Origin: Pseudocercospora fijiensis CIRAD86
Taxonomy: Eukaryota; Ascomycota; Dothideomycetes; Mycosphaerellales; Mycosphaerellaceae
Direction of reading: 5' to 3'
Length of the DNA stretch: 64,000 bases
Assembly (NCBI RefSeq): GCF_000340215.1
Contig: NW_006921533.1
Span: 3,770,273 to 3,834,272, forward strand
Position numbers and translations under genes: made by a program. The notes under the pieces are model-generated. The model was not told where the DNA came from, made no database searches, and worked only from the letters and a program-made list of their open reading frames with translations. Positions 1 through 63,340 of the stretch are shown here, piece by piece (within the stretch, counting starts at the first letter, position 1; each line of letters begins with the position of its first letter).

Positions 1-639
1 CTAGATAGGCCGTCTACCTCGCCGGGTTTGATTTTAATATGTTATACCGGCTAGGCGTAAGTAACCCTGCCGATAGCCTATCGAGGCGACCTAATTACGA
101 TAGCGAGACCTAACACATCAATTCTTTGTTTCTAACCCTATAGTATAAGATTACTATAGCCTGTATTATTAATAAGCAAGCGTAGGATAAGCGGACTTCC
201 GGACCCCGCGGCGATAACAAATACTATAGCAGAGTTGTCGTTCTTCTAGTATACGTTAAAAGAAAGGACGTAGATCGCTCGAGCTATAATAACTCGATTA
301 AAGACATTGCTATCTATAGTAATAGCCTATATAGCGACAGTACTATAGAAGAGGTTGTAGTAGTTCCGGCTGCTAGTGCTATTAGATGCATATAATACGT
401 ACCTCGTTCGACAGTATAGATACTATTAAATAACCTTGTAAATAGGGATAGTTAATCGTTTATAGATAAGCTGTTGCGTGCTTAGTAGAGGGACGCCTTT
501 GCTATCGAGCGTATTAATAAGCTTGTAAGTAGGCGGGCGACTCGATCTAGTAAGAGTAACAACAATTAGTCGATCGACGACAAAGGTTACTTAAAGTTTA
601 AGGGCAGGTATTATGTCCCCGCTAAACAATCGATTAGAT

Positions 640-2003: not shown

Positions 2004-3172
2004 TGTTACCTAGGAACAATGCTACCCCCGGGGTGCTATTAGCTAACTAATTAGAGGCAAGTAATTGTTAGCAACAAAGGACAATAAGACTATACTACTA
2101 TAGAATCTACCTCTTTACTAGCGTACCCTATAAGACCCTTCTCTTAGCGCCCCTCTTGTTCCTCTATTCTATCGAGGCCCTAAGGCCTAAGCGATCGATA
2201 AGGGCGATACGCGCGCGCGTACGAATAACGGTAAGGAAGATAATAGCGTCGCGCTACGAGCTAGCGAAGGACGGCGCGGCCGGCGCGGCTATATTAGTAA
2301 CAGTGTTACGGGGTGTGTTACTATTCGAGAAAAGAAGGACACCGCTATGTTAGTAACGGTATTACTAATATTGTTGTTAGTTAAAGAAGGAAACCGGAAG
2401 CAAGGTAAAGTTAGCGCTAAGACGGCTAGCGCCGCTATTGTTAATATTACCTAGTCGCTACTGTTATTAACCTTACCTACGTTAAAACTTTAAGGTACCT
2501 TTAATTAAAACTTTAATTAAACTTTGAGGCTAAGTTAAAACTTTAAGCCGCTTAAAAGATTAAGTAGACTAATAGACTAACTAACTAAGGGCAAAACTAT
2601 AGAGCTAAGCTAGCTAGGATCGATCTTGCGGACAATAGGTTACTCCTCGATCTTTCTAACCTTTTAAGCGAGGCGAACCTTAACTACTGTACTTATAATA
2701 GCCTTTACCTATAGAAACTAGACGAGCTGTGTTTTTTCTGAAAAGTAAATAATAGCCCTCGTAATAATAAGAACAAACCCTCGGAAGCGGACAACCCTCG
2801 GAAGCGGACATTACTAGGTCTTTTAAGAGTAGACGCAAAGAACTCGATACGACATTACTTAGAACGGAGGCAGTGCTACAATATCCCGTATACCTACCTA
2901 TTATAGTAGGGAAGGTGCGCTCGTATTATAATTAGTCGATAGTCCTCAATTCTTATAGCTTTATATCCCTTTACTTTATTGTATATAAGGATAGCGTAGT
3001 TAGAGTTAGACATTATATTAGAAGGTAAGGTTTAATATAGTTATATAATTAGGTAGTTAAGTGTTCAATTCAGCGCGGACTAAGTAGCTTATTAGACTTG
3101 CTAAGTTAGCGGCAATAGAGGTCGTAGAACATAGATAGGCTACGAGGGCGCGGCCTTTAGAAGGGAAGCGTA

Positions 3173-3368
3173 TATTAGGGCTAAAGAGGCTATACGTGAT
3201 TGGCATGTGACTAGGCTAAGTAAAGCTAGGGTCTTAGTGCCTTAGGCAGGGCTTGGCGCTTAGCAATAGGCTAACTTGCCTGCCCTCCTCCCTCTCCTCC
3301 TAGCTCCTTATCGAATACTACCTATACCTACTACTACCCTATCTACCTGCTAACAGACCCTTCTTATA
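3173..3368 (+). repeat. 3' LTR of the left gypsy copy (196 bp)
   Basis: This is the reverse complement of the LTRs at 44969-45164 and 51879-52074, with the same length. It begins TATTAGGG (TG changed to TA) and ends CTTATA (CA changed to TA), so both canonical TG...CA ends have been altered in the RIP direction. Confidence 0.9.
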
Positions 3369-4199
3369 TATAGGTATAAGGAGCTATACTTAAAGAGGTA
3401 CTGTCGCCTATGTTTAATATACTAAGAATACTAGCTAAAGGCCGTAGCTTAAGACGTAGAATTAGGTCGCTATTCGAGTTTTTAAGTGTCTCTATTATTA
3501 GCGCCGCTAGCGAGGCTCCGAGCATACTAAGTCCTGCTAGGTTTGTAAGCGCCGGAAGCGACTTAAACGCCGTAATAAGCGCTATAGTAAAGGAAGTTAA
3601 GCTAAAGATAGTATATTAAATAGATGCTATCTAGTCTAGTATCTAGGCCCTATAGGCGACGATAACCGCTTCGTTACTATTAAGGCCGTTACTATTGTCT
3701 TAAATAGAGCTTCCTTCTAATAATATCGTTATAGGTAGTTAAACGGACCCGATAGACAATAATAACGATAGCGACGGCTTCGTAGACTTTAATACCCTCG
3801 ACGATAAGGTATTCTCGTAGATAATTTAATATATTAGTATTAGGGTTAGGTTTAGAGTTAGGGTAAAGCAGTTATAGTCCTTCTTATTGTTATAAATATT
3901 GTAATTACTTAGTTAATATCCTCTTTTATAATTGCCTATTCGAAATCGTACTCTAGTTCGGTACGAGAGCGCTAAGAGCGTCGTTTTCTATATAAATCGC
4001 AGGGTTTAAGCTCGGTCGATAAATCCGGTTTCGATTACTAGCAGCGCGAGGTAAAATAGGGCAGGTATAGTAGTATATAGCTCGAAGCGACGCGGAAAGC
4101 CGAGTAGTATCGCTTAGTAAGCGGGCTCCGACAATCTTCGACTCGCTACGTAATAACGCATTACTCGTTTTTATTTATTTTTAGACGATAGTATACGCC
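3369..4199. other. AT-rich repeat-derived DNA, no gene
   Basis: RIP-like sequence between the gypsy LTR and the Harbinger transposase relic. A 62-codon open stretch lies near 3410-3619 but resembles no family I know. At 3840-3866 there is a short degenerate TTAGGG-like run, too short to call telomeric. The left end of the Harbinger element probably lies here, but I could not identify it. Confidence 0.5.
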
Positions 4200-43176: not shown

Positions 43177-43616
43177 TGTGTCACATCGCCTGCAGTACAG
43201 AGTCGGAAGTGTACACTCGACGTTCTTTGAGAAGTCATACGAACCACTGGTCTTTCCAATGAGAAGAAGAGCCCAAAGTATGGAAGCTGAGATGCCGCGC
43301 AGCCGAGACATCCGGGTCTGGAAAACGTGATCACGCCACGGTGTAGGGTGTAGGTATGCTGTACTGCGCGAGCTCGAAGCATATAATAGGAGCAAGCTTC
43401 ACATGATCCTTGCCTGCAAGTTCGCGGGACAGTGGGGGAGAATCTATCTCCGGTTCAGACCCTTGCTGACTAAGCGCAAGGAAGTGTGGTAGGTGTGGGT
43501 CTTCTACCTGCCTTCTACTACTATGCTCCTTCTACTACTACTACTACTACTACCAATCTATATCGGACTACTACGCGACCGGACCTATACTACTACACTA
43601 ACCTCCTTACGCTAGT
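43177..43616. other. Junction between genes and the large repeat unit
   Basis: Unique-looking sequence to about 43490, then a CTTCTAC/(CTA)n simple-sequence run at 43501-43555 and AT-rich repeat-type DNA up to the inverted repeat at 43617. The same simple-sequence motif, inverted, lies beyond the right end at 62659-62730. Confidence 0.5.
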
Positions 43617-43662
43617 AAGGGTCTAAGGACAAATGTAGCAGATCTATAGCATTGTCCTTATA
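43617..43662 (+). repeat. Left terminal inverted repeat
   Basis: 46 bp beginning AAGGGTCTAAGGACAAATGT and ending CCTTATA. It pairs with 62529-62574 in reverse complement, matching at 37 of 46 positions without gaps, including a 14-bp identical block (CTAAGGACAAATGT). Confidence 0.65.
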
Positions 43663-44126
43663 AAAATAAAAGATTACTAACTAGCGTAGAATACTATAAT
43701 TTGATGTATACATATTATAGCCCTGCTATTTCTAAGTTATTCTATATATATAATATTTAAATACGACGTATAGTTATAAAGAAAATAAGCAATCCTTACT
43801 ACGGGTAGATATAGGTATACGACGGATTGTTATAGAGCGCTGCTACCTAATATCTAATATAGGAAATACACAAATCTAAGACTAGGAGGTTGTAGACCGG
43901 CTAATTCTAAGTACTGTTTATATAAGCTATATATCGAGAAAATGTATACCTACTGTCTACTAACTCTTAAGCGGAGCTAAGCTAGCTACTCGAAATAAGA
44001 CATTCGGATCTCGACAAGTAACAACCCGGAGGTTCTAGAATAGCCAATTCTTAATTACTTTAATATAAGCTATGTTTGTATAAAGCGTAGTATTGTTATA
44101 TTATATCTAAGTAGCGGAGGTTACTT

Positions 44127-44188
44127 AGCTATTACTAAAAGCTATTACTAAAAGCTAGCACTAAAAGCTAGTACCAAAAGCTAGCAGC
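44127..44188. repeat. Short tandem repeat (AGCTATTACTAAA-like)
   Basis: About four degenerate 13-15-bp units near the left end of the large unit; subterminal repeats of this kind are common in DNA transposons. Confidence 0.5.
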
Positions 44189-44365
44189 TAGCATATTGTC
44201 TACTAATATTCTCGGTTATGTACTAAGCGATAGAAGATCCTATATATAGGCGGGCGGCCTTCTATAGGCGGCTTCCTATAGGCTGTCGTTTATCGCGCTA
44301 AGACAAGCAACCTCGTAAAACACAGTCTCGTTCGGCTTCGGATGCGCGTTAAGGCAGACTCTCTC

Positions 44366-44455
44366 TATATATCGTATATATCGTATATATCGTATATGTC
44401 GTATATTATATATTGTGTATCGTATATCGTATGTCGTATATCGTATATCGCTGTT
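44366..44455. repeat. Tandem repeat of ATATCGT-like units
   Basis: About ten degenerate copies of a 7-9-bp unit (TATATCGTA), just upstream of the DUF6589-like start. Confidence 0.6.
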
Positions 44456-44968
44456 AGTAATTCGAATAAAGGCCGCATTTACACGCTCTTTATTTAAGTA
44501 GGCCTAAAGGCAATATAGCTTTGCCGCTTTAAGCTACAGGTATAATAGCGGGCTGCCGCCTTCTTCTTCTTCTTCCTCTTGCTTTTAGCTTCTTCTGCCT
44601 TACTACTTGCATCTACTACTCGCATCTACCGCTAATATGTCCGACGTCGATATACTAGACTCCGACCTACTAGACCTACTAGACCTGCTAAGCGCGCTTT
44701 CTAGCCTACCGCTAAATCTATACCCGAATAAGTTGTCTAAGCTATTATCTAAATTAAACCTAGATTCCGAGGCAGATGCTAGTATATAAGCTGCGCTTAA
44801 TATAGACTAGCAACGTATCGAGGTAGAGCGCTAGATAGCTACTATCGACGAGAGGGTACGTAGAGAGGCCCTATTCTAGGCGGTTAACGACGAAGATATA
44901 TACGAGCCGGAGGCGTATAAGCAGGATAATAATCTTAGTAATAATAATATTGTATTAGAAGAGGCGGA

Positions 44969-45164
44969 TGTAAGAAGGGTCTGTTAGTAGGTAGATAGGG
45001 TAGTAGTAGGTATAGGTAGTATTCGATAAGGAGCTAGGAGGAGAGGGAGGAAGGTAGGCAAGTTAGCCTATTACTAAGCGCTAAGCCCTACCTAAGGCAC
45101 TAAGACCCTAGCTTCACTTAGCCTAGTTACATGCTAATTACGTATAGCCTCTTTAGCCCTAATA
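44969..45164 (-). repeat. 3' LTR of the nested gypsy element
   Basis: 196 bp. Read on the plus strand it begins TGTAAGAAGGG and ends CCCTAATA, so the minus-strand LTR runs TATTAGGG...CTTACA. The TG start is altered to TA; the CA end is intact here. Confidence 0.92.
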
Positions 45165-46319
45165 CACGCTTCCCTTCTAAAGGCCGCGCCCTCGTAGCCT
45201 GTCTATGTTCTACGACCTCTATTGCCGCTAACTTAGCAAGTCTAATAAGCTGCTTAGCCCGCGCTAAATTAAACACTTAACTACCTAATTATATAACTAT
45301 GTTAAACCTTACCTTCTAATACAATGTCTAACTCTAACTGCGCTATCCTTGTATATAATAAAGTAAAGGAATATAAAGCTATAAGAATTAAGGACTATCG
45401 ACTAATTATAATACGAGCGCACCTTCCCTACTGCAATAGGTAGGTATACGGGGTATTGCAGCACTGCCTCCGTTCTAAGTAATGTCGTATCGAGTTCTTT
45501 GCGTCTACTCTTAAAAGACCTAGCAACGTCCGCTTCCGAGGGTTGTCTGCTTCCGAGGGTTTGTTCTTATTGTTACAAGGGCTATTATTTACTTTTTAGA
45601 AAAAACACAGCTCGTCTGGTTTCTATAGGCGAAGGCTATTATAAGTGCAGTAGTTAAGGTTCGCCTCGCTTAAAGGGTTAGAAAGATCGAGGAGTAACCT
45701 ATTGTCCGCAAGATCGACCCCAGCTAGCTTAGCTCTATAGTTTTGCCCTTAGTTAGTTAGTCTATTAGTCTACTCAATCTTTTAAGCGGCTTAAAGTTTT
45801 GACTTAGCCTTAAAGTTTAATCAAAGTTTTGATTAAAGGTGCCTTAAAGTTTTAACGTAGGTAAGGTTAACAATAGCAGCGACTAGGTAATATTAATAAT
45901 AGCAGCGCTAGCCGTCTTAGCGCCAACTTTACCTTGCTTCCGGTTTCCTTCTTTAACTAATAACAACATTAGCAACACCGTTACTAACATAGCGGTGTCC
46001 TTCCTTTCTCGAATAGCAACACACCCTATAATACTATTACTAATATAGCCGCGCCGGCCGCGCCGCCCTTCGCTAGCTCGTAGCGCGACGCTATTATCTT
46101 CCTTACCGTTATTCGTACGCGCGCGCGCATCGCCCTTGTCGATCGCTTAGGCCTTAGGGCCTCGATAGAATAGAGGAATAAAAGGGGCGCTAAGAGAAGG
46201 GTCTTATAGGGTGCGCTAGTAAAGAGGTAGATTCTATAGTAGTATAGTCTTATTGTCCTTTGTTACTAACAATTGCTTGCCTCTAATTAGTTAGCTAATA
46301 GCACCCCGGGGGTAGCATT

Positions 46320-49300
46320 GTTCCTAGGTAACATTATAGGCCCTTAGCCTTCTTCTTGTTCTTTATACTAGTCTAATACTTATCTAACAACTTAGTTATG
46401 TCCTTAAAGGAACCTTTAGCTTCCTATAAGTCCTATTTAGGTAAATAGCCTTACTATCTTAATAGGTACTCCTTCTTGCCTTGCCTAGTCCGGTGCTTTA
46501 GAATACGTTCTATAGACTACAGCTCTTTACTATCCGCTAGTATGTCTTTATGTTTAGTAAGGGCTTCATCCCCCTCGCGCAAGTAATATAGCTTAAGGAG
46601 GGATACATAGAAGGTGTTATAGATGGTATAATAAGGAGGAAGCTACAACTAATAGGCCTATGCGGAGGAGCCCTTAACTTCTCGAATGCGGAATAGACTA
46701 ATATATCTTAGTGCGAGCTTAGGCCTTGTTTTGCCGTTAGGTAATAGGTACTTGCGGATGCGGAGGTTCTTAGTACTTAGCATAACTATATCGCCTTGTT
46801 TAAAGGTCCTTAGCGTATAGTACTTGTCGTAGTAGGTCTTTTAGTACTCTTAAGCCTTTGTCAACTTCTCGGCTATCTTAGTATAGATTTCCCGCATCTT
46901 CTAAACCCTCTTAATAGCCGCTAGTGTTTCGGGTACTTAACGCGCTTCCCTTTCCTTACGCTCGGCCTCGAGCGATAGGGGGTCTTGTAGCATAGCAGCG
47001 TTCTAGCCTATTATAGCTATATAGGGTAAGACCTTAGTTAATAAATACACACTGTTGTTATATACGAATTCGGCTAGTTATAGAAGGTTAACCTATCTAT
47101 TAGGGTCTTTATTAATGTAGCTACGCAGGTACTGCTATAGCGTAGCATTTTGCCTCTCTGTCTAACCGTTAGTCTATAGATAGAAGGCTATTAATAGCCG
47201 ATGCTTTAGTCTTAGCTGTAGGCATAATTCGCTCTAATAGTGCGATATGAATGTCGAGCCCCTATCGGAGACTATCCCCTTAGGGGTCCCCTAATAGCTA
47301 TAGAAGATGTTGTTCTATAGGGCTTTAGCTATATTAATAGTAGTCTAATCCTTTCGAGTAGGAATGTAACGAGCACCCTTAGTGAATCGGTCTACAATAA
47401 CTAGTATAGCGTTAAAGACGTCTTTGCTTCCTCTTCGCTTAGTAGAGGGAAGACCTATAATAAAGTCTATTATAAGCTCTATAAAAGGCTTCTTTAGAAT
47501 AGGGAGTAAAGACAACTCGCTAAATAGTAAGTGCTTTAGTGCTTTAACTCGCTAGCATACTACATAGGTCTGTATATACTCCTTTATATACCGCTTACTA
47601 TTTAGCTAGTAGTATATGCGCGATAGTAACTCGTGCGACCTCTCTATGCTATAGTAACTAGCGAGTTTACTATTATAGTGCCTCTTTAAAAGCTCTTATC
47701 TAATCGATTGTTTAGCGGGGACATAATACCTGCCCTTAAACTTTAAGTAACCTTTGTCGTCGATCGACTAATTGTTATTACTCTTACTAGATCGAGTCGC
47801 CCGCCTACTTATAAGCTTATTAATACGCTCGACAGTAAAGGCGTCCCTCTACTAAGTACGTAACAGCTTATCTATAAACGATTAACTATCCCTATTTATA
47901 AGGTCATTTAACAGCACCCGTACTATCGAACGAGGTACGCATTATATACATCTAATAGCACTAGCAGCCGGAACTACTATAACCTCTTTTATAGTGCTAT
48001 CGCTATATAGGCTATTACTATAGATAGTAATGTCTTTAATCGAGTTATTATAGCTCGAGCGATCTACGTCCTTTCTTTTAACGTACACTAGAAGAACGAC
48101 AACTCCGCTATAGTATTTGTTGTTGCCGCGGGGTCCGGAAGTCCGCTTATCCTACGCTTGCTTATTAATAACACGGGCTATAGCAATCTTATACTATAGG
48201 GTTAGAAACAAAGAATTGATATGTTAGGTCTCGCTATCGTAATTAGGTCGCCTCGATAGGCTATTAGCAGGGTTACTTACGCCTAGCCGGTATAATATAT
48301 TAAAATCAAACCCGGCGAGGTAGACGGCCTATCTAGCCTATCGACCTATAACCCTAGTAACCTTAGTAATACTACGGAGGTTGTTATAGTCTGTATAGAC
48401 CTAAATTGTATGCTAAGCACTATTAAGATAGTAGCGCTAATGCTTGAAGGCTTTAACAATAGCTAAGAGCTCTTGCTCGTAGGTCTCGTAGCGACGTTTA
48501 GTATTAATTATCTTCCTCGAGAAGAAGGCAATCGGGTGCTAGTAGGTGTTATTAGCCTATTGTAATATAATAGCTAATATAGCGAACTATAAAGCGTTAG
48601 TCTCAATTCGGATCTGTTTGCTTAGTACGAAATAGTATAATAAGGGGACTTTAGTAAATCGCTTCTTTAGACCGTTAAAAGCGGCTTGCGTTTTGTTAGT
48701 CTACCTAAACTCTCTAGAAGGGTTTGCCTTAGTCTTAGTAAGCTTAGTTAATAGTATTACATGCCTCGAATAGCCCTTAATAAAACGGCGGTAGAAATTA
48801 GCGAAGCCGAGGAACGATTAAAGCTCCTTAATAGACGTAGGAATAGGCTATTTAGTAATTGTTTTAATCCGATTAGGATCAGCCTTAACACTATTAGTTA
48901 ATACGATAAAACTAAGAAAGGCTACCTCCTTAGCAGCAAAGGTGCATTTAGAAGGCTTACAATACAGTCTATAGGCTCGTAGGCGGTTAAGGACCTTGCG
49001 GACTATAGCCTAGTGCTCCGCAATGTTAGGTAAGTGTATATAAACTAGGATGTTATCTAGGTAAACTACATAGAGGTAATCTAATAGGCCTAATAGGGCC
49101 CGATTAATATAGGACTAGAATATAGTAGGGGCATTAGCTAGCCTAAATAGCATAACTAAGTACTCGAAATAGCTATAGCGAGTATAAAAGGCTATCTTCT
49201 ATTTATCGCCCTTGCGAATACGAATGCGGTAATAGGCGTCCTTAATGTCCAATATAGTATAGTAGTAGGCACTAGAAAGGCGATCGAGGGTCTTATTAAT

Positions 49301-51621
49301 AAGAGGAAGTAGACAGCGATCTTTAATAGTAACAGCATTAAGCCTACGATAATCGATATAGAGGCGTAGGCTACTATCCTTCTTTAGTACGAACAGGATA
49401 GGGGCACTAGCAGGGCTGTTACTATACCGAATGCGGCTATTAGCTAGGTTTTCCTCTAGGTACTTACGCAACATAGCAAGCTCTCGCTTACTAAGGTTGT
49501 AGAAGGGGCTAAAAGGAACCTCCTTGCCCTCTATAATGTTAATCTTATAATCTGTCTCCTTAAACATAGGCAATGTCGATGCTAGGTAATGTTTGAATAC
49601 ATTAATATAGGTCTCTCGAATAGGCACTAGTATACGTTCGAGCTAATTAGGGTCTATACTATTAGGGGGCATAGGTTTATCGTTATTACTACTAAGCAGG
49701 TCGGCAGTCGGATTAGCTAAGGCGGAGGCTAGTATTAGGTTGCTAATAAACAGGACCCTAATATTATTAGGACACTCGCTAATATCAATGTATTTAATGT
49801 CCTCTTTCCTAGCGATTCTAAATCGCTATTGTTAACTGCCTAAGTCTATAACTATAGCATAGTACTTAAGAATAGGGTTGCTAATAACAATGTCGGATAG
49901 GAGGCTATCTATGTCTACCGCGTAAGTAGTAAAGTTTAGTAGGCGTTTATTTCCGAGGTCGTCTTTTAGAACTATAGGAACATAGTAGGCCCTATAGGTC
50001 AAGTGCCGAGCGTTATTAAACTAAGCAAGGGTTAGTAGGTTAGTTTTCGGCAGTTGTCGGAGGTCTAATTGCTTAGCTAGGCGATAGCTAATAAGGGCAC
50101 TAACTGAATTTCCGGGGTCTAGCATAACCTTTGCCTTATAGTTAGTGTCGCGCCTAGATATAAGATAGGTACGTATAATAGCTAGTATAATGTCGATAGT
50201 CTTACGCCGTACAAGGCTAACAGTTAGTGCGGCGCTTACTCTTTTTTCGACTAATTAAAAGAGCCGACTAGGGTAGCATTAGCGGCTAAAAGGTGTTTCC
50301 TATGCTTAGCGGAAGCATAGTTAATTCGGGCCTAGTCCTTAGGTTTGTCGCATTAGCCTAGTAGATAGCTAGTGCTATTACAATTAAAGCACTTCAATCC
50401 GGTTAGGGGGTTGCTATAGCCGCTATTGCTGCTATTATTAGTTAAGCGATTAGTACTATAGGGATACGAGCCCCTTCTACGGCCCCTATCGCGGCCTCCT
50501 CTATATAGCTAGCGGCTACAGCCTCTTCTACGGTTATTGTTACTATTCCTATTGTTAGTATTGTTGTTATAGTAGGAACCTTGATTTCCTCCGCGGCTAC
50601 TACGATTGCCGCGGTTAGTACTAGCTAGCCGGATCCTCGATTCTAGTCGTTGCTAGAGCTAGATAGCTCGTTCGGCTGTTTCTACTTCGACTATAAATTA
50701 AATGCGTATTAGGTTAGCTTATTCGAACATACGGCGACGGTCTAATTCGAGGATAAGTTCCTATCTAAGTTTTAGGCGTATTTCCGAGATCTATATAGAA
50801 TTAGTCTTAGGTAGAAGGTTATCCTCGAGGGTCTTTAAATAGGCTTCAAATAAGCGAGCCGATTGATTAGTCTTCTATTTAGCTCGAAGATACAGGTCCT
50901 AAGCATATTATTGCCTTAGTATAGGGTTTCTAAGGGTATCTAGTATAATAGTTTTATAGGTCTACTACTAAACAGCGGTCTAGTCGTCGAGGGAGTCGAA
51001 ATAGTTATCCTATGTGCGCTTTAGGTCGCTATTAATGTACTGCATAGCGTGTACGACTAAGGAATAGTCGTCTAGTAGCGCTCTTAGTACATTGCGCTAG
51101 TTGAGTTTATAGTTACGAATGTAGTCGTTATACTGCTTTCGACTAGAGCTATTAAACACAATGCAGTCCTTAAGTTTAGCGTCCTTCTTTTAGATAGGTA
51201 GTAAAGAAGGTCCTGCTATTAGCTTAGTAGTAGTTGTTAGAGATTCCTAGAGGCGGCGAATCTCGAGAAGATTATCCTTTAGCTATTGTTCTTAACGCAA
51301 GGTAGTAAGCCTGTTTTAGGTAGCTTCTTAAAGCCTCGCTACTAGCTAGGGGCTAAAGGCTAGTTAGCTATATCGACGGTTAACAATATTGCTAAGAATG
51401 TCGTTAATAGGCAACCCTAGGTCGTTACCTAGAATTATAGGTTCTTCGGTAGGCCTAGTAGTAGGCTCTTTAGTAGGAGGCACTTTAGCAGGTGCTCCGG
51501 TAGGCACTTTAGTAGGAGGCGCTTTAGTAGGCACTATGCCGCTAGCGTTGTCGTTGCTAGCGCTACTAGCGGTAGTACGGTTGTTGTTTCGTAATAAACT
51601 AGCTATTATAAGGAGCGACAC
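46320..51621 (-). pseudogene. Gag-pol of the nested gypsy element, RIP-inactivated
   Basis: Minus-strand reading gives Gag from an ATG near 51621, with a Pro/Thr/Lys-rich stretch. A zinc knuckle lies at 50397-50351: CFNC, then Tyr in place of the expected His, a stop in place of Gln, and the last Cys, both changes in the RIP direction. Reverse transcriptase is open at 49627-49199 ([29 protein letters not shown]). The YLDD box (near 49040-49065) reads YLDN, losing a catalytic Asp by TpG to TpA. RNase H sequence follows (about 47900-48600). The integrase (about 46960-47530) and chromodomain (about 46380-46550) mirror the left copy. No functional protein can be made. Confidence 0.85.
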
Positions 51622-51878
51622 TAATAATGTATTATTAGCCCCTAAGATACGGGTATAGCGGAATTAGCGAGTATCGTTCTAATATGCTTAACTTAGTATA
51701 ATAGGCCGTATAGAAGGCCTTGCTTAATAATTAGTACGGTTGTTTTAATAGAATAGTACGTATAGGTCCCGTTCTTCGGGCGTAATATAGTTAGATTAGT
51801 CTTGTTCGTAGCTATACCGCTAAAAGCTTAAAATAAGAACTATCTAGCTGCTGCCCTCGAAGGGTAGATCGAATACTA

Positions 51879-52074
51879 TATAAGAAGGGTCTGTTAGCAG
51901 GTAGATAGGGTAGTAGTAGGTATAGGTAGTATTCGATAAGGAGCTAGGAGGAGAGGGAGGAAGGTAGGCAAGTTAGCCTATTACTAAGCGCTAAGCCCTG
52001 CCTAAGGCACTAAGACCCTAGCTTTACTTAGCCTAGTTATATGCCAATTACGTATAGCCTCTTTAGCCCTAATA
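51879..52074 (-). repeat. 5' LTR of the nested gypsy element
   Basis: 196 bp, paired with 44969-45164. On the minus strand it starts TATTAGGG and ends CTTATA, so both termini are changed from TG...CA. Directly followed on the plus strand by the GCGGA duplication at 52075-52079. Confidence 0.92.
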
Positions 52075-55063
52075 GCGGAAGAGGCTCCTATCGAGGAAGA
52101 CGAGGCTATCGACCTATTTAGCGACGTCGAGGAGGATAATAGCGATATACTAGCGGACGAGGAAAATGCGGAAGATGCTAGCGTAGCTATAGCACTACGC
52201 CGCTAGACTCGATAACAAACTCGACTCGTAGCCGTAGCCGCCGCCGCTAGTCCTTAGCGACGTATTTAACAGAATAGGACTACTCGAGGCACTTAACGCG
52301 TTCGTAGTTAGCGTCGTACCCGCGAGTAGAAGTACGTTAATATCTTCGGAGAGATAAAGCGTACTAGGCTCCCGCCTAAGTAGTAGATAATAATCTTTAA
52401 TAGCTATAGCGAGAAGCTAAATAGGACTTATCGTAACTATATCCGCTAGTCTATAGCTGCCCTTAAATATAAGTATATCGTCTTAGCTCGAGTTATTCGT
52501 AACGAACTAAAGAAGCTTATTAGTAAGCCCTTCTTTAGCTAATATAAGCCGGAAGATTCGATAAAGGAGGTTAACCTATAGGAGATATATAGTATTATCG
52601 AAGATACTATACTAACCTAGGTCGATCTTCTACGTAAGCTGCTTCCGAATAAGAAGGTCCTAATCGATAAGACTACGAACGAGTCGCCTCCGTATAAGTA
52701 GGACCGCCTCTACAAACGTATCGCGGTAATAATATAAATAGCTATTCGCTCGATCTCCTTAAAGAAGGCCTCGATTTTCGGTAAGCAATTCGGCCTATAT
52801 CTAGTTACTAGCGGTATACTATACTACGTTATTAGTATAATTAATAATATAGGCATTTCTAGTGCCGCCCGTACGATTTAAGTGTTAATACGGAAGATAG
52901 AGGCGGTCTAGGACTAGCGTATTATAATTATAGCTCGAGACAAGCGGAGTTTCTCGGTATACGACAACCTCGTAAAGCAGAAGAACCGTAAGAGCGTCTA
53001 GAAGCAAGGCGACTATACGGAGATACTAAATATAACTACATCCTATATCGGCATTAACGAGCGCATTTAAGACGATTTAACTAAAGATATAATCGATTTA
53101 AATTCGGAGCTTAGCTATAAGCATATCCTAGGAAACCTAGCCGAGGACGCGAAGCATAGAACCCGTAAGTACCTCTCGTTATACTATATCGACTAGGCAT
53201 TAGGTATTATATTTAGACTAGAGCTAAAGGGTATATTCGAGAGGTACGATTTCGAGATACGATACTAGTCGACTATTTTAGAGAGTATCGATATAGTAAT
53301 AGGAGTTAGTACTAAGCATCTCCGTAAGGGCAACAAAACCGAGCGCTTTATATAGCTAGAAATCGATATAATAGACCTAGAAGATGCTACCGACCTCGTA
53401 CTAATAAAGCTGTTAATAAACGATAAGGTATCGATTGCTAGATCTAAGAAGGTCCTAAAGGACATCTTTATCGACAATATACAACTAGATAAGGATAAGG
53501 ACTTCGGCGATCCGGATCCTACTCGAGATACGAAAAGCCGACTATATCTAATCGTCGGAGACTAGATAATATATGCCCGTTTTAATAGCTATTAAGCGGA
53601 AGGCGTCGAGTCGGAGCGCCCGTACGATCGATACGACTAGGGCGTTATCGTACCTAGCTAGCTATATATCTATATAAACAAAGCGTACGGCATCGTTAAG
53701 ACCTACTTCGACAAGAATTCCGATAAGGCGCAGCTTGCCTATTCCTTAGTCGGCGATGCCTTGTTCTATACGATAAAAGGCATTAGTAAGGAGAACCCTA
53801 AATACTTTTTAATCTTAAACTTGCTATATCGTATGTTCCGTAGCCGCATTACTACCTGCTTCTAGTATAAGATAGACTTACAAGGTTTATTAGACTATTC
53901 CGATAAGTCGAAGAGCCAGATAGAGGTGCTAAAGGCTGCTATCTCTAATCTCGAGCTAGAGTAGTATCTGCAAATAGTCGAGAATATCTAGAGCAAGGCG
54001 TTTACTAAGGAGATATAGCAAAACAAGTATATTAGTAAGGACGAGGTCATTATCTAGGATGCTAACTATACTACTATGTATCGCTTGCTAATACAGATCG
54101 AGGAGCTTATAACGATACGTACCGCTATCCGGAAAATAGACGTCGGTTACTTAAAGCGTATAGTCGACTATCTTATCGTTCTATTCCTTAGAGCTAACTA
54201 GACTAACTACGCGAAGCATATGCTAGAATTCCGCTAGTTACTAGAATAGGAATAGCCGTTACGTCGAGTATTAATAGCTATCTCTATCGTTAACCCCTCT
54301 AGTAAGTAAGGCAAAGGTATCGCCGTAGATAAAGAGATCGAGCTTATTAACAACGACCTAACCCTAGATCTGAATTACTTTAGTAACTCGACCTATAATA
54401 TAGCCGCTGTCGCTCGTAAGAAGGCCGGTAATCGCCGCGTAGCTCGAGTATTAAAGAAGATATTTACATCCGCGATCGGTGTCAAAGGTACTAGTTACTA
54501 TACTAATAAGAACGCTATAACCGATATACTAAGTATAGCCGATAAGCTGTTCCGAGATAGCCTTACAGAGCGACAACTAGTTGCTAAGGACGCTAATAAC
54601 AATTGCGCCCTATCGGACGATATTTAGTAGATTAGTATTAGTAAGCTAGTACTAGTAATTAAGGCATTAAATAAAGCTTATAGCGCTCGTTCTCGGTATA
54701 TAACTATAAGCACGAACGAGGCAGGCAATAATAGCGTCGATAGTATTAATAGCGCTAATGCTCGTAGCTACGGACTCGACGGATATAGCGGAGATCGTAG
54801 TCTACTTAGTGCTATAGCTATTAATAAGGCAGATAAGCTATATATAGATACTAATAGCTTTACTTAGCTAGGCGACGGTCTACTACTAGCAGGATATGCC
54901 TAGGCATTAGGCGAACACGACAATAGCAATAGTAGTAGCAATCTCGGCTTCTATACTATAGCTAGCGGTATGCTATATAATATAGCACTCGCAGATCTAG
55001 ACATGCTGTAGTCTAACGATGCTAATCGCAACCTAGTTCGCGATACTAGTCGTACTAGCACTA

Positions 55064-55110
55064 GTAGAGCTAGCAGAGCTAGCAGAGCTAGCAGAGCTAG
55101 CAGAGCTAGT
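55064..55110 (+). repeat. 9-bp tandem repeat coding Ser-Arg-Ala
   Basis: Five near-perfect AGCAGAGCT units, in frame within the DUF6589-like gene. Confidence 0.7.
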
Positions 55111-55297
55111 AGTAGAATAGACGATAGCGACGACCTAACACTTATATATAGTGCTATCTAAGAGACCGCTACTACTACTAGCTACTTCGATTATGCCGAG
55201 TATTAGGATCTAGGCTAAGATAATAATAAGGCTATTATAACAGCAATAGCTATAGACTAGGGTATTGCAGTAATAAAGGGTTAAATAGAACTAGCTT

Positions 55298-55428
55298 TAA
55301 TTCGCTAGAATTAGCGCTAGAATTAGTACTAGAAATAGCACTAGAAATAGCACTAGAAATAGCGCTAGAAATAGCGCTAGAAATAGCGCTAGAATTGGCG
55401 CTAGAATTGGCGCTAGAATTGGCCTTCT
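55298..55428. repeat. 12-bp tandem array, GGCGCTAGAATT orientation
   Basis: About ten units of a 12-bp repeat drifting between AGCGCTAGAATT, AGCACTAGAAAT and GGCGCTAGAATT. The same unit in the opposite orientation (AATTCTAGCGCC) makes arrays at 57701-57768 and 58239-58512. Confidence 0.75.
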
Positions 55429-55499
55429 CGTCGCGTACGTAGACCTCGAGCAACTTCTCGATAAAGTTAACTCTAGGTTAATAGCCTTAGGTAACTATA

Positions 55500-57041
55500 T
55501 ATTAGATTAGTGCTTGCCTCGCAGGTATAGTAATATATAGCCGTTATTGTTGCCTTGCTATTATCGTGCTGCTATTAGTAGAGGCAAACCTTACCTGCGA
55601 TACGCTAATATAGACCTCCGCTTTCTAGTTTAACTTCTTCTTCTTCTTCTATATATATATATATACATATACTAATACACTAACACCCCTAGTAACATAC
55701 TAGCTATCGGCTTCTTAGTAACAGTATCGATACCTCTTTGTCGTATATAGGTAGCTCTATAGCGATTAATACTATTCCTTGCTAGTTCTACGGCTTGCTA
55801 CCGACAGAGCCGCTTGTCTAATAGTTAAGGTTCCTCGATAGGTAGAGTTTGTTTAGTCCTTCCTCTTCCTTCGAGGTTTGGTCTCCGATAGGCTTTGCCG
55901 ACGTAAGACGTTGCGAACGCGACTCTCCTAGCGAGTAGGTTGTTTTCTATAGCTTTAGCGGGCGCCGACTGCGCATTTAACCGAAAGAGCATAGTTGTTA
56001 TTAGATTATCGCAGTCTTGTCTTAGTGTAACAAACTGCGGGTCTCGGGTAGATTAGCGGAGGTAAAAACTCTTTAGTAAGGTACACCTATAATGCGGCTA
56101 ACGGTCTAACTCGGTAAAAACTCTTTAGTAAGGTATACCTTAAGTAGCGGCTCGATAGCGACTCTCCTACTAAGTAGGTTAATAGACTAAGTAGGTTAAT
56201 AGGTTCGTAGCATTGCTATAGGCCTAACTCGGTAAAAACTCTTTAGTAAGGTATACCTTAAGTAGCGGCTATAGGCTCCCTACGTTCGGATTCTTTATAG
56301 GATAACATACGCGTATCTAGTTAAGTCGGCGTAACGCCTTCGTTAGGACTGTTAGTTATAATAACCTTAGTCGTTACGTAAGGGCCTCTAGTATACTTAA
56401 GCCCGAAGGCGCTTAGTCTTTACTACTATACGACTATAGCACTGCTATACGACTGTAGCCCTTTGCGTATTAAGACTGCTATTCGACTATAGTACGCCTC
56501 CTCTTCTAGCAAGCGTATTAACATTGCTATACGACTACAATGCGCTCGACAACCCTTTTCTACGGTGTCTCTAATACTAAGGGCGCGGTTACACTCTATT
56601 ATTGTCTAGGTACTAATAAGTGTCGCTTTAGCGAATAAGCTGTTATTGTTTCGCTTAATAAGTCCCGTCCTATATACCTTGTCTTCGGTTATACGTGCTA
56701 TAGTTAGTAATAGAATACGTTAATTGTTGCGCATTACGCGTAGCATATAGGCTATATATAATTCTAGTATACTTCGGAGTATATGCTTCTATAGCCGCTT
56801 AGTACCGCTAGTTAATTAGATCCCCGGACGCTACTACTCGTTCTTCTCTGCCTCGTATAGTAACTAGTTATCGGAATGATCGTTCTAGGAGAGTCTAAGT
56901 AATAGAGGGCGTTAACGTAAGAGGGCTATCGTAGCTTCTCGAAGAGTACTTGCGCTCGATATATATTATCGCCCTACGTATCTATCCTTGCCGTATATAT
57001 TATAGTGCCTATAAGAGCATGCGGTGTAATAAGTATAGTAC
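55500..57041. other. Repeat-rich spacer of the large unit
   Basis: No gene seen. A motif of about 28 bp (GGTAAAAACTCTTTAGTAAG plus GTAYACCT) occurs at 56061, 56113 and 56231. Degenerate short motifs around CTGCTATACGACTGTAG recur at 56440-56560. Could hold regulatory or terminal-binding repeats for the element's proteins (inference). Confidence 0.5.
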
Positions 57042-57220
57042 TAGTCTCGCTAGTCTCGCTAGTCTCGCTAGTCTCGCTAGTCTCGCTAGTCTCGCTAGTA
57101 ACTTCTCGCTAGTAACTTCTCGCTAGTAACTTCTCGCTAGTAACTTCTCGCTAGTAACTTCTCGCTAGTAACTTCTCGCTAGTAACTTCTCGCTAGTAAC
57201 TTCTCGCTAGTAACTTCTCG
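57042..57220. repeat. Two adjoining tandem arrays: 9-bp and 14-bp units
   Basis: 57042-57098 is (GTCTCGCTA) about six times. It passes directly into about nine copies of TAACTTCTCGCTAG to 57220. Both units share CTCGCTAG, so the longer one looks like a grown version of the shorter. Confidence 0.8.
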
Positions 57221-57547
57221 GGTTTCGGAGGCGGTTCTTAGTGCCTAAGGCGGCCGTCGTTATCGTATTAGACACTTTTGTTAGCGCTATTTGCTAGAAA
57301 CGCGCTAAATCGACGTATCTCGCTATACTAGTAATACTATTATAAAAGTCGTAAAAGTCGGTATTGTAAATACGCGGAAGGAAGCAGCTATAACGTTTAA
57401 TCCTACTAATTAAGCGCTCTGCTATACTAAATCCGGGGTCTTAGCGGGACTCGGTATCCTTATCGCTTCCTCGAATTTACGCTTCTCGCCTAGCTCTTAT
57501 ATACTATCGATACCTACGACTATCGACACCTACGACTATTTATAAGG

Positions 57548-58512
57548 ACATAATTAGCGAGCCTATAAGGATATAATAGAAGGGTAGTAAAGAGCCTGCT
57601 TAGCGAGCCTATAAGGACATAATAGAAGGGTAGTAAAGAGCCTACTTAGCGAGCTTATAAGGATATAATAGAAGGGTAGTAAGGAAGGACCTTATAAAAT
57701 GCCAATTCTAGCGCCAATTCTAGCGCCAATTCTAGCGCCAATTCTAGCGCTAGCTCTAGCGCTAGCTCTCGTAGAAGCAGCTAAACTAGGCACTATACGC
57801 TAGCTCTCGTAGAAGTAACTTAACTAGCTCTCGTAGAAGCAACTTAACTAGGTATTATACGCTAGCTCTCGCAGAAGCAGCTTAACTAGGCATCCTACAT
57901 TATATGCCGGCTCTCGTAGGAGCAGCTTAACTAGGCATCCTATATTATACGCCGGCTCTCGTAGAAGCAGCTTACGCCGGCTCTCGTAGAAGCAACTTAC
58001 GCCGGCTCTCGTAGAAGCAACTTAACTAGGCATTATACGCTAGCTCTCGCAGAAGCAGCTTAATGCTGCTACCGATATCTAATCTAGAAGATATTATAGT
58101 ATATAACCTATCCGATCTAGAAGATAGTATAGTATATAACCTACGATCGAGCGTAGTATTACGGCTTACTTTTCCGGGGATAGGACAAGGACTTAGCGAG
58201 CTTACAAGTATATAATAGAAGGGTAGTAAGGAAGGACCTTATTAAATGCTAATTCTAGCGCCAATTCTAGTGCTATTTCACTGCCAATTCTAGTGCTATT
58301 TTACCGCCAATTCTAGTGCCATTTTACCGCCAATTCTAGTGCTATTCTAGTGCTATTTTACCGCCAATTCTAGCGCTATTCTAGTACTATTCTAGTACTA
58401 TTCTAGCGCCAATTCTAGCGCTAATTCTAGCGCCAATTCTAGCGCCAATTCTAGCGCTAATTCTAGCGCTATTCTAGCGCTATTCTAGTACTATTCTAGT
58501 GCCAATTCTAGC
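57548..58512. repeat. Nested satellite block with 54-bp, ~38-bp and 12-bp units
   Basis: 57548-57692 holds three ~54-bp units (TTAGCGAGCCTATAAGGACA ... GAAGGGTAGTAA); a fourth appears near 58195. 57701-57768 is a 12-bp AATTCTAGCGCC array. 57765-58064 has about eight units around CTCTCGTAGAAGCAGCTTAA. 58239-58512 is a longer 12-bp array with variants. The block lies between the two genes of the large unit, at the 3' ends of both, and the last array touches the helicase C-terminus. Confidence 0.75.
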
Positions 58513-61500
58513 TTAGGTATCTATCTCTTCTTACGACAAGTTAGGCTCTCCTCGAGTAGATTCTCCGGTAGGATGTCTGCGCTAACAAGAGCAAGGTTCT
58601 CTCGTACTTTTAGAGTTAGCGATAGTATACGACGCGGGCGATTGCTGCTTATAGCCTTACGAAGAGCAGACTTAGCGACCGAGATTAGAGTGCTATAATT
58701 ACTATCCTCGTCCTCTCGTTAGCGCCGGCGGCGTAGTATCCGCTATATTAGTATACGAGTAGATAAGGCCGTAGCACTATTATCCTAGATTAGATCTCCT
58801 ATATACTTACCTTTCGCCTTTAGTTAAGACTAAGACTATAACTGCTTCTTCTAAGTCTTAGCCTTCCGATTGCCTACGATAGCCTTCTTTACTAGCGATA
58901 TATTAGCGTCGCGAGACTTATTAGAATCCTATTATAGCTAGCGAAGACGATCTCGCGCTATAGGCGGAGGCTAATTAGTTAGTAGGTCGCCGGAATTACC
59001 GTTATCTACTTCTATTATATCCTCCGAAGCCTTCTTTCGCTCGGCCTACTTACGCTTCCGCTCCTCGTAGTACTCCTACTAGTCCTTAAAGGCCTAGCGA
59101 AAGCTATAGTTAATATACCGAAGGACGTTACCGAGCTTTAGCTTACGACGAAGGTTATCGCCGCTAGCCTAATACTAGGTATCGAAGTCTAGCGTACTCT
59201 CTAGCATTTCTTCTCTATCTATACTAGTCGATTCCTCTTCTACGTCGCTAAGCGCCGGGTGCTGCATTACATTATAGAGGTTCTATATATATTAGTCCTC
59301 GATAAGAGTATTCGATAGAAAAGTAAAGAAGTACGTATTAAACCGGCCGCTAGCTTTATTAGCCTTCCGGTCGAAGAACTTCTATAGGTATAGTAGTAAG
59401 AAGTACTGCTTAGAGCCCTTATACGGTGCAACTAGGGCTTTCGGTAGGCGTAGTGCCTGTTTATCCTACTAGAATACCGAATCTAGATCGCGATTATAGA
59501 CAATGTTATAGCAATCCTTACGATCTAGGGTCTCCTTAGGATCCTACAATCGGAGCTCTTCCTAGTATCGCTTATTAAGGATAGTACGTAGGTATCGAGG
59601 CGTCGCTATATACTAGCTATTAAATAATAAGCGGAAGATGTCGGAGATCTTATTGCGCTTTTCTATATTATTCTTAGACTAATTCTTACGCCTAGGCGCA
59701 GAGGCATTAGCATTAGTATTAGTATTACCTGCTTCCTAGGTTTCTAGTGCAGCTATGCCTGTGCCTATGCCTATGCCTGTGCCTATACCTGTGCCTGTGC
59801 CTATGCCTGTGCCTCTCGGAACGATAATAGTATCCTCGTTATCCTTATTCTAATCTAGGTCTCTATTAATATCTTCGCTAGGGATCTCGGTATTACGTAG
59901 ACCGCTTAGTCGGATCGGCTAGTATATAATAGCACCCTATACGAGATTCTTATATTAGTCCGCGTTAGCCGGTCGACCTTCTCGATTAATAATAGAGATA
60001 TAGTTAATACTATCTAGAACATACTTAGCTATATCGTCGATATACTAAGGGAAGAAGAAGATAGTATATAACCGCTATCCTACGCTAAGCTTACGACTAG
60101 TACGACTAGCTCGCTATATAGCATCGTTAATATCCTTCGTAATAGGTAGCTACTATATAATAACGAATTTAATATCGCTAATATTAGTGCCTATAGCGAT
60201 CGCTAGGGTACTAACTATAATGCGAGTTAATAAACGAGCGCTAGGCTTCTTAAACTCGTTATATCGGAGATCCTTGTCGTAATTAGTAATATAAGTAGTA
60301 TAGAAAGCGACGACTTTATATACATTATAGCTAGTATTATTCTAGGTATACTTCTTAGTTAGATCTTCTTAGCCCTTTGTTAGCTAGATAAGCTACTAAC
60401 GTAGTATAAAGGTTAGCTTATTAACCTTGCCCCGACTATTAATAAAGACGATCGCCTTATCGATATTTGCGGATATAGCCTATCTATCCTAGTCGACTGC
60501 TTTCTTTAGTAACAGATATAACAAGTCGAAGTCGCTACTATGCTTCTACGGGATAGTCTTAAAGATATATATAGTGTCGATCCGATCGATGCTCGTACGG
60601 ATAACCTTAGTCTTAAATGCCTCGCGGCTATTGTTACGGAAGCCTCTATACTTTAAGACAAATTCGAGTGTCTCTTAGGAGATAGTCGTAGAGGCACCTA
60701 GCTATAGGGTGTTATTACGGAATAGGCTGCGGAGGGTATATATTTAGGCAAATTCCTCGCGGAAGTCCTTCTATTTATATACTAAGTATAGCTTATCGAT
60801 AGTAATAAGGCTAATGCGATCGCTAATCTTCTTAAATACCTCTCGCAATTCCGGAGTAAACGCCTACTCTAGACTATAGAAGATATAGTAGTACTTGCTA
60901 GTAACGATATTATCGTACATCTTTAGATCCTTACGCTTAGTCTTAGTAGAGATTATATAGTAACGTACTAACTCGACGTTTCCGGTAGTAACTATAGACT
61001 TCTAAGTAAGCGCACGTATCGTTTAGTCGATATTAGCCTTCTGCTCTTTACTAAGGCGGTTTAGAGGGATAATCTAGATATTAATGCGACTAGTTAGTAT
61101 AGTATATACCTAGTAGACTAAGCTCTTGCCGCTACCGGTCTTCTCGATTATTACTATATCGGTGCCTACGAAAACTAGGTTATATAGTACCTCGCGCTAA
61201 AGGTCCGAAGGCATATAGCCCTTGTCTAGATAGAATGTATTTAGTACCTACTGTAGGCTATTCTTAATAATGTCCCGCTAGAAGGGGATAGCCTCTCGCT
61301 TAAAACCGGCATCCTATATTAATATCTAGATTTCCTCTAGATTAAATAGCTTATCGAGTATATAATTAGTCGTAGCCTAGAAGAAGGCGGTCTTCTATTA
61401 TAGATCTTAAGGAAGCTCTAGCTTCTTAGTAGACTAGTTTAGCTGCTAGCGGGTATAAGCCTTGCGAGATAGAAGGATTAGTATAGCTTGTAGCTAAGTG

Positions 61501-61560
61501 TTCTACGTACCTTGCTATTACTATTGCTACTAGCGGCGCCGGTCGTATGTCTTTGCTAGA
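58510..61560 (-). pseudogene. RecQ-like DEAD/DEAH-type helicase gene, RIP-inactivated
   Basis: The minus-strand frame, read through RIP stops, shows superfamily-2 helicase motifs. Walker A is EKTGSGKSL at 61149-61123. A DEXH-type box (about 60803-60785) reads IDKLYLV where relatives have IDELHLV, both changes in the RIP direction. IYTLRSLFRNNT, AIVFINSRGKVNKLTFIL and FYTTYITNYDKDLRYNEFKK follow. Then come TRIIVSTLAIAIGTNISDIK and a motif VI region with RASRTSRKLSVG (about 60121-60084). Upstream, MPSDLxREVLYNLVF resembles a RecQ-type Q region. The C-terminal ~500 residues are charged and family-specific. RecQ helicases unwind DNA 3' to 5' (established). Similar helicases occur in fungal subtelomeres and large transposons. 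Ends are approximate. Confidence 0.65.
59754..59814. repeat. 6-bp tandem repeat GCCTAT/GCCTGT
   Basis: About ten units inside the helicase C-terminal half; on the minus strand it codes a Gly-Ile/Gly-Thr run. Confidence 0.65.
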
Positions 61561-62528
61561 CGGCCTACTAGATTCGCACTCGACTAGCCCTAACTCTAGC
61601 CCTAGTTTTACTACTGCTAGCGCCGTTGCCTACGTTAGTTCTTAGTAAGGTTAGGGTTCCTAGCTAACTAGAGAAAGCTACCGCTAGCGTAATAGATCGG
61701 ATCCGGAGGCGCTATACGTAGAGGCGGAAGATTAGTATAAGTATAAGCATAGCTATATTCTATAGCTTGTCCGGCGTCCTTATTACTAGATCTATTATCT
61801 ACTACCGATAATAATGTCTTTATATTTAGCGCCTTTAGCACTAACTTCCTTCTACTTTAAGTCTATTAATAGTCCTATATCCTAGCGCGGTAGACCTTAA
61901 CGAGCGGCTTCTTCGGTAGCTATAATATATAGCGATAGCGATAACGATAGCGGCGAAATGCGAAATGCGAAATTCGAATACGGACTCGAGTCTTAAATTC
62001 GATAAGCGATTGAATCCCTCTAAAGCAGGCGGTTACTAGGGCGGAGGTATTCGGTTATTGCGCTATACTAAAGTCGGGCAGCTTTAGTAATATAAGACGG
62101 TAGATATATAGTAGTAACAGATATATTAGATAAACATACGCGAAGTTATACGCGTTTAGTAAAGCGCGTAGACCTTAAACAGCCGCGTTTTAGCCTAGTT
62201 TACCTAATCGGCATTAGTACGTAATAACGCGATACTATTACGGATAGCAAACACTTAGAGGTTAGAGAGCGGGTAATTCTAAGGGTCTACGTATGTTTCC
62301 GCCTATAGTAAACGGTAGTAGTTGTATCGTAGTAGAGGTAATCCGGACGCTATTCGCATAGCGTTTGTCTTAAAGTAGTGTTTTGTAATTTTCATTCCTA
62401 TATCTTTAGAAATATATAGATTATTATATAGATATTAATTTTCGTCTACTTAATACCTATAATTAATTCTAATATAACTTTTACTTAAAATGTATGGTTG
62501 TTATGCTATTCTACCTGTTTTGCAGATA
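61561..62528. other. Right flank of the large unit, upstream of the helicase
   Basis: AT-rich, RIP-like. No further gene recognised; it probably includes the helicase 5' end and promoter. 62380-62520 is especially AT-rich. Confidence 0.45.
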
Positions 62529-62574
62529 TATAAGGTCAATACTGCAGCTTTGCGACATTTGTCCTTAGGCTCTT
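62529..62574 (-). repeat. Right terminal inverted repeat
   Basis: Reverse complement starts AAGAGCCTAAGGACAAATGT and ends CCTTATA. 37 of 46 positions match 43617-43662, in a gap-free comparison by eye. Confidence 0.65.
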
Positions 62575-63340
62575 CTACGAAGACTTCTCCTATATACTAG
62601 ACTATATACAGAAGAGCCGAGAACCGATCGACGCTAATTGCACGTAGGTTAGGTAAAGGAAGGTAGAAGGTAGAAGGTAGAAGGTAGAAGGTAGAAGGTA
62701 GAAGGTAGAAGGTGGAAGGTAGAAGGTAGGATAAAGTCTATAAGAAGAGCCTGAGAAGGAGGTAGGGTAGAATAAGCCGTGTTCCCCCAGCATCAAATGC
62801 TCGCATGCACATGACATGCAAGCGATGCCTATGCTTATCATTGTACCTCTGTAACACTTCCGGCTAAAAGATGAAGTCGTGCTTGGCAGTCACTGTTGTC
62901 CGTACTGCTCGAAGCCAGATGAAGGACTACCTCCATTCAGGCGCTTCGTGGTTGAATTCGTGTGTGTGCTGCTCGTGACTTCCATTTCTACACTATACCA
63001 CATTAGGTTTAGCGCCATTCGAGATCTCATCTTTGGGCAAAGGATTAGGTGGAGTGGTGTGTGATTGGTTGTTCGGAAAGACGGAAGCTAGCCCTAATTT
63101 AAATCTATCACGTGCAATCTGACCAATTCACCACCGCGCAACGTAATCCTTAATGCACAAAGGCCTGAACGGAGGTAGATGAAGGAGTCCGTTCTCGGCA
63201 GATGCGTTGGAAGAAAGCACCGGGATTCTCATAGCGGCCCACCCAACGATCGTTTCAAATACAGAAGCATGCCATGAGGATGTGTTAACGAAGAACTAGA
63301 CTCTGTGAGACTTAGCTGCTGCACTGGCCACACTGACATT
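62575..63340. other. Junction and upstream region of the FAD monooxygenase
   Basis: Contains a (GAAGGTA)n array at 62659-62730, then unique-looking sequence from about 62760 leading to the monooxygenase start. CACGTG near 63109. No gene seen. Confidence 0.5.

What the first reader, a model, noticed from the sequence alone, without database searches (positions are those of the whole stretch)
43617..62574. Undescribed-looking transposon architecture: DUF6589-like protein plus RecQ-like helicase within one pair of inverted repeats
Seen: a 46-bp inverted repeat (37 of 46 bases match) bounds a unit with two divergent-in-identity, convergent-in-direction genes and a satellite-rich spacer. Known: DUF6589 is a fungal domain of unknown function, and RecQ-like helicases travel with some large fungal elements and subtelomeres. 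Inferred: the two proteins cooperate in mobility or replication of the unit, with DUF6589 as a possible recombinase or replication partner. RIP on both genes says the unit was multicopy.
Basis: partly seen in the sequence, partly recalled or inferred. Interest (0 to 1): 0.88.

Follow-up and report, generated by a model that had tools for sequence, protein, structure and literature searches.

The report
Fungal transposon carrying DUF6589 and helicase
This is a real, now mutation-riddled fungal jumping gene, about 12 kb long, that carries an uncharacterised protein (probably its transposase) and a RecQ-like helicase; related copies in the same genome show where its true ends lie and that insertion duplicates 8 bases.

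Summary
The finding is real, but its borders were misread. The 46-bp inverted repeat (37/46) exists and is beyond chance, yet it lies inside the element. Homology among copies runs on to true ends at window 43444 and 62765 (CTATCTCC.../CTACCTCC...). A 7.1-kb LTR retrotransposon (44969-52074, GCGGA duplication) is nested inside; the net element is about 12.2 kb. The DUF6589 gene (+) and RecQ-like helicase gene (-) converge, and both are broken by RIP-type mutation. Of 15 elements with both ends read, from three families, 9 have perfect 8-bp target duplications, 1 has 9 bp, 4 have imperfect 8-bp ones and 1 has none (swapped flanks: 0 of 210 perfect). Ungapped empty sites confirm the 8 bp. Of 102 scored DUF6589 matches in the genome, 72 have a helicase match within 20 kb, 64 of them convergent. 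By elimination DUF6589 is the likely transposase. The closest known kind is AcademH (transposase + helicase, fungi and animals), but its reported duplications are 9-10 bp, and no Academ transposase sequence could be compared. Verdict: a new variant of a known kind, with a role proposed for DUF6589; a separate superfamily is not excluded.

The parts
43436..43443 (.). left target-site duplication GGGAGAAT (7/8 against the right one)
43444..62765 (+). whole transposon, 19,322 bp including the nested LTR retrotransposon; 12,211 bp net
   Evidence: homology boundary over 11 copies
43444..43467 (+). DUF6589-side terminus CTATCTCCGGTTCAGACCCTTGCT (16/24 matches to the other terminus)
44969..52074 (.). 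nested LTR retrotransposon (reverse-transcriptase fragment 49199-49642, -, RVT_1 E 1.2e-5; Ty3-like by eye), LTRs of about 197 bp, 5-bp duplication GCGGA
52420..54768 (+). DUF6589 gene, part conserved among copies (RIP-broken); Pfam domain 53362-54363; proposed transposase
55303..58512 (.). satellite-rich spacer between the two genes; no Pfam domain in six frames of 55301-59900
59901..61808 (-). RecQ-like helicase, part conserved among copies (RIP-broken); DEAD about 60678-61169, Helicase_C about 60093-60320
62529..62574 (-). subterminal inverted repeat, right arm
62742..62765 (-). helicase-side terminus (CTACCTCCTTCTCAGGCTCTTCTT on the - strand)
62766..62773 (.). right target-site duplication GGTAGAAT

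Best explanation
A DNA transposon of about 12.2 kb that carries two convergent genes. Shown: defined ends (CTATCTCC.../CTACCTCC...), an inverted repeat just inside both ends, 8-bp target duplications, empty sites, several copies, and the same gene pair in divergent families of the same genome. Inferred: DUF6589 is an RNase H-like DDE-type transposase that binds the ends (possibly through the subterminal repeats), cuts them and joins them to target DNA with an 8-base stagger; the RecQ-like helicase unwinds or remodels DNA during excision, strand transfer or repair. The lineage is most likely AcademH or its sister. Inferred too: the window copy took an LTR retrotransposon insertion and both were then mutated by RIP.
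For: Ends and duplications: 15 elements with both ends in three families gave 9 perfect 8-bp, 1 perfect 9-bp, 3 of 7/8, 1 of 6/8, 1 none; swapped flanks 0 of 210 perfect. Empty sites: D, G and J align across the junction with no gap (93, 88 and 90%); H has one 150-base match with no gap (96%) in satellite DNA. The pair: with the window's helicase as query, 34 of 102 DUF6589 matches have a helicase within 20 kb, 31 convergent. With all rows, 62 of 102, 57 convergent (random placement: mean 7.9, maximum 16 of 500; convergent mean 2.1, maximum 8). Adding the 53 stop-bearing rows, 72 of 102, 64 convergent (random: mean 9.7, maximum 19; convergent mean 2.5, maximum 8). Helicases in these pairs are as little as 31-44% identical to the window's, yet the arrangement is kept. 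Six-frame Pfam scans of the whole element outside the LTR retrotransposon gave only DUF6589, DEAD and Helicase_C plus one chance-level hit (SSFA2_C, E 0.077), so DUF6589 is the transposase by elimination. Fungal Academ copies are reported to carry DEAD/recQ domains (PMC6416283, passage).
Against: No intact protein and no structural model. DUF6589 matched nothing but its own Pfam family and one weak DUF1896 hit in 1 of 7, no PDB chain and no protein in three database searches with stop-masked queries. No catalytic triad was identified; only candidate conserved acidic residues were seen. RIP damage may hide a third gene from Pfam. AcademH is reported with 9 or 10 bp duplications (PMC10045372, passage), not 8. 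The window copy's own duplication is 7/8, with a G/T mismatch that RIP does not explain. One element (N2a) has no duplication; 30 of 102 DUF6589 matches have no helicase found.
Confidence: 0.72

Rival explanations
1. A superfamily separate from Academ and Kolobok: DUF6589 is a distinct transposase that acquired a RecQ-like helicase on its own, with CTAYCTCC-type ends and an 8-bp stagger.
For: 8-bp duplications in three families instead of the 9-10 reported for AcademH; shared CTRYCTC ends; DUF6589 hits no transposase profile in Pfam; no paper in the library names DUF6589.
Against: The composition (transposase + DEAD/RecQ-type helicase, in fungi) is the one reported for AcademH; duplication length may vary within a lineage (one 9-bp case here). 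No Academ sequence was available to compare.
Confidence: 0.25
2. A telomere-linked RecQ helicase unit or other subtelomeric repeat.
For: RecQ-like helicases in subtelomeric repeats are reported from several fungi (PMC4522978 and PMC5576322, passages).
Against: The element lies about 3.81-3.83 Mb into an 8.84-Mb contig, copies lie along many contigs, and there are target duplications and empty sites.
Confidence: 0.01
3. Helitron, Starship or another recombinase-type element.
For: A helicase is present; the element is large.
Against: 8-bp target duplications and CTAYCTCC ends; the Pfam scans of the element gave no Helitron or tyrosine-recombinase domain.
Confidence: 0.01
4. Segmental duplication of a host gene pair, with the repeats incidental.
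For: Both genes are broken in the window, so activity cannot be seen.
Against: Homology stops at the same base in 11 of 11 copies at the DUF6589 end and 10 of 11 at the helicase end, with a different duplication for each element, and empty sites exist.
Confidence: 0.01

Closest known systems
AcademH (lineage of the Academ superfamily; Kojima 2020, paper not held, known only through papers that cite it and from recall)
   Same: DNA transposon with a transposase and a DEAD/Helicase_C helicase; reported from Ascomycota among others; fungal Academ copies carry DEAD/recQ domains.
   Different: Reported duplications are 9 or 10 bp; here 8 bp, one 9 bp. Transposase relatedness not tested.
KolobokH
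   Same: RecQ helicase in a fungal DDE transposon.
   Different: Kolobok makes TTAA 4-bp duplications and has 5'-RR ends; here 8 bp of varied sequence and 5'-CT ends. [quoted passage not shown] here it is on the other strand, as reported for one rhodophyte Kolobok.
Zisupton/KDZ and hAT
   Same: 8-bp duplications.
   Different: No Pfam match to them in any of 7 DUF6589 proteins; no RecQ helicase known to me (recalled).
Telomere-linked RecQ helicases
   Same: RecQ-like helicase in repeated DNA.
   Different: Subtelomeric; this element is interior and duplicates its target.

Membership tests
AcademH | encodes a DEAD/Helicase_C (RecQ-type) helicase | tested here: met
AcademH | 9 or 10 bp target duplications | tested here: not met
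   8 bp in 13 of 15 (9 perfect, 4 imperfect), 9 bp in 1, none in 1; the 9-10 bp figure is from a passage of PMC10045372
AcademH | transposase related to the Academ DDD/E transposase | not testable with these tools
   no Academ sequence held; three protein searches with DUF6589 found nothing
KolobokH | TTAA target duplications | tested here: not met
[quoted passage not shown]
   in the window the helicase is on the opposite strand; convergent in 64 of 72 paired matches
Zisupton/KDZ, hAT | 8-bp target duplications | tested here: met
Zisupton/KDZ, hAT | matching transposase profile | tested here: not met
   only DUF6589 in 7 of 7 and one weak DUF1896 in 1 of 7; profiles can miss remote or RIP-damaged relatives
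DDE transposons in general | conserved catalytic D, D, E/D | tested here: inconclusive
   eight acidic columns (alignment positions W182, 243, 336, 381, 547, 574, 637, 641) show D or N, or E or K, in 32 of 32 rows; the rows hold 30 distinct copies (L011 is copy J, L017 copy C); no triad assigned
Telomere-linked helicase | subtelomeric position | tested here: not met

The most novel reading that the evidence does not exclude
DUF6589 defines a DNA-transposon superfamily of its own, neither Academ nor Kolobok, with CTAYCTCC-type ends, an 8-bp stagger and a convergent RecQ-like helicase on which its transposition depends.
Probability: 0.25. Interest if true: 0.75.

Novelty: new variant of a known kind. 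Interest (0 to 1): 0.5.

Why it matters
It gives a domain of unknown function a testable role as a transposase, defines real ends and target duplications for an element type whose helicase gets it annotated as host genes (as reported for Academ in PMC6416283, passage), and points to one genome with 102 scored DUF6589 matches in which to ask why a DNA transposon keeps a RecQ-type helicase.

Tried and rejected
Rejected: the 46-bp repeat as terminus (homology goes on 173 and 191 bp further out on the two sides of the window copy); an 18.9-kb unit length (7.1 kb is a nested LTR retrotransposon); subtelomeric repeat, Helitron, Starship, segmental duplication.

Led nowhere: three protein-database searches with stop-masked DUF6589; viral contigs; NCBIfam; PDB by sequence for DUF6589; the AcademH paper, not held. 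Papers were seen only as search listings and as passages found by term, none read whole; Kojima 2020 was not seen. DUF6589 gave 0 papers. One search failed on a too short term.

Dropped before counts: copy C (helicase end missing) and the C5 copy of the g1 family (DUF6589 end not seen) were left out of the 15 elements. The ten pairs were picked by eye from the 55 sites. One search used 65 of 67 helicase rows. For one search I chose by hand 44 of 98 rows and 17 of 134, having noticed that some lay near DUF6589 matches. One search repeats it by rule (all 67 rows, all 98, and the 53 rows that carry a stop, out of 134) and gives the same 72 of 102 and 64 convergent. Both controls place helicases at random within contigs; where a contig's length was unknown, and throughout, the largest coordinate seen was used. 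Genome counts are from capped lists: 102 of 177 DUF6589 candidates were scored. Two DUF6589 rows (C6:1767264 and C6:1770852) lie 3.6 kb apart and may be one locus.

Against my reading: N2a has no duplication, and its right end is a copy of a left end; 30 of 102 DUF6589 matches have no helicase found; 3 matches with the helicase upstream on the same strand form one group (C6:1377817, C5:1729933, C1:10924040); no empty site was found for 9 of 15 elements among the sequences in hand, the window's among them, and the site for A has 6 gaps. The g1 termini match each other poorly (8 to 10 of 24) and show no subterminal inverted repeat. Ends of the other DUF6589 groups were not read.

Full report
The window lies in a 73.9-Mb assembly of 30 contigs (C2:3770273-3834272), by its content a fungus (inferred). 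The island at 43.4-62.8 kb has RIP-type composition: G+C 0.407, TA/AT 1.79 and (CA+TG)/(AC+GT) 0.36 in the element, against 0.534, 0.53 and 1.34 in the left flank.

The 46-bp inverted repeat is real and beyond chance, but it is subterminal. Its core occurs 55 times in the genome with at most one mismatch, against 1 for the reversed control. I picked by eye ten facing pairs about 12-13 kb apart. Aligning their surroundings with the window shows homology running on outward to CTATCTCC (10 of 11) or CTGTCTCC (copy D) at the DUF6589 side, and to CTACCTCC (9 of 11) or CTGCCTCC (copy J) at the helicase side, after which the sequences differ; copy C is truncated at the helicase side. The window element is 43444-62765.

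The excess length of the window copy is a nested LTR retrotransposon at 44969-52074 with LTRs of about 197 bp, 97% alike, a GCGGA duplication and a reverse-transcriptase fragment (RVT_1, E 1.2e-5). A partial second copy of the same retrotransposon is at window 1-3370.

Target duplications were read for 15 elements: nine others of the window's group and the window copy, three of a second family (g1) and two of a third (N2). At offset 8, nine are perfect, three are 7/8 and one 6/8; one is a perfect 9; one has none. Mean identity at offset 8 is 0.858 for own flanks against 0.282 for swapped ones; at the other offsets from 4 to 12 own flanks are at 0.15-0.27, swapped at 0.22-0.26. Joining flanks minus one duplication finds ungapped empty sites for D (window 49182-49381, 93%), G (window 50822-51012, 88%) and J (L047, 90%), sites with one gap for E, which fits its 9-bp duplication, satellite sites for H, and a site with six gaps for A; none for the other nine.

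The gene pair is conserved. There are 102 scored DUF6589 matches. With the window's helicase as query, 34 have a helicase within 20 kb, 31 convergent. With every row of both helicase-protein searches, 62 do, 57 convergent; adding the stop-bearing Helicase_C rows, 72 do, 64 convergent, 52 of those 64 with 3.5-7 kb between the matches. Random placement gives means of 7.9 and 9.7 pairs and maxima of 16 and 19. Helicases paired with DUF6589 go down to 38-44% and 31% identity to the window's, so the arrangement is old. The g1 and N2 families share the CTRYCTC ends and the 8-bp duplication.

Mechanism. Six-frame Pfam scans cover the whole element outside the retrotransposon and show no domain but DUF6589, DEAD and Helicase_C, and one chance-level hit. 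A RecQ-like helicase is not expected to cut and join ends by itself (established knowledge), so DUF6589 is inferred to be the transposase. It has strongly conserved acidic columns around YDN, GD(Q), DxGH and DxxxExxN (read by eye), but I assign no triad. [quoted passage not shown] this is a resemblance, not a test. The helicase's role in excision, strand transfer or repair is inferred.

Known kinds. AcademH and KolobokH are DNA transposons with a helicase, and fungal Academ copies carry DEAD/recQ domains. AcademH is reported with 9-10 bp duplications and Kolobok with TTAA. The element therefore works like AcademH, but one reported feature is not met and the main one, transposase relatedness, could not be tested, so I call it a variant and do not file it as a member.

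Noticed in passing
window 1-3370: Partial second copy (95.5%) of the LTR retrotransposon nested in the element, in another RIP island.
   Followed up: partly
window 43444-44968: The outermost DUF6589-side sequence of the window copy resembles copies such as I and J, the sequence from the subterminal repeat inward copy A: a possible recombinant or gene-conversion product.
   Followed up: no
G000, e.g. C8:4205599, C7:4562264, C3:6590438: A separate group of stop-bearing Helicase_C matches 29-131 kb from contig ends, perhaps telomere-linked helicases.
   Followed up: no
C6:1377817, C5:1729933, C1:10924040: A divergent DUF6589 group with the helicase upstream on the same strand.
   Followed up: no
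G000 sites such as C2:6289467, C3:2787715, C14:414487: Helicase-side ends without a helicase match in the lists, with the subterminal motif 126 bp inside (185 bp in copy A): possible short non-autonomous derivatives.
   Followed up: no
L035/L036 (copy H): Copy H is inserted in satellite DNA like that of other copies of the element, and a helicase match (C9:3115405, +) and a DUF6589 match (C9:3136735, -) lie on its two sides: probable self-nesting.
   Followed up: partly
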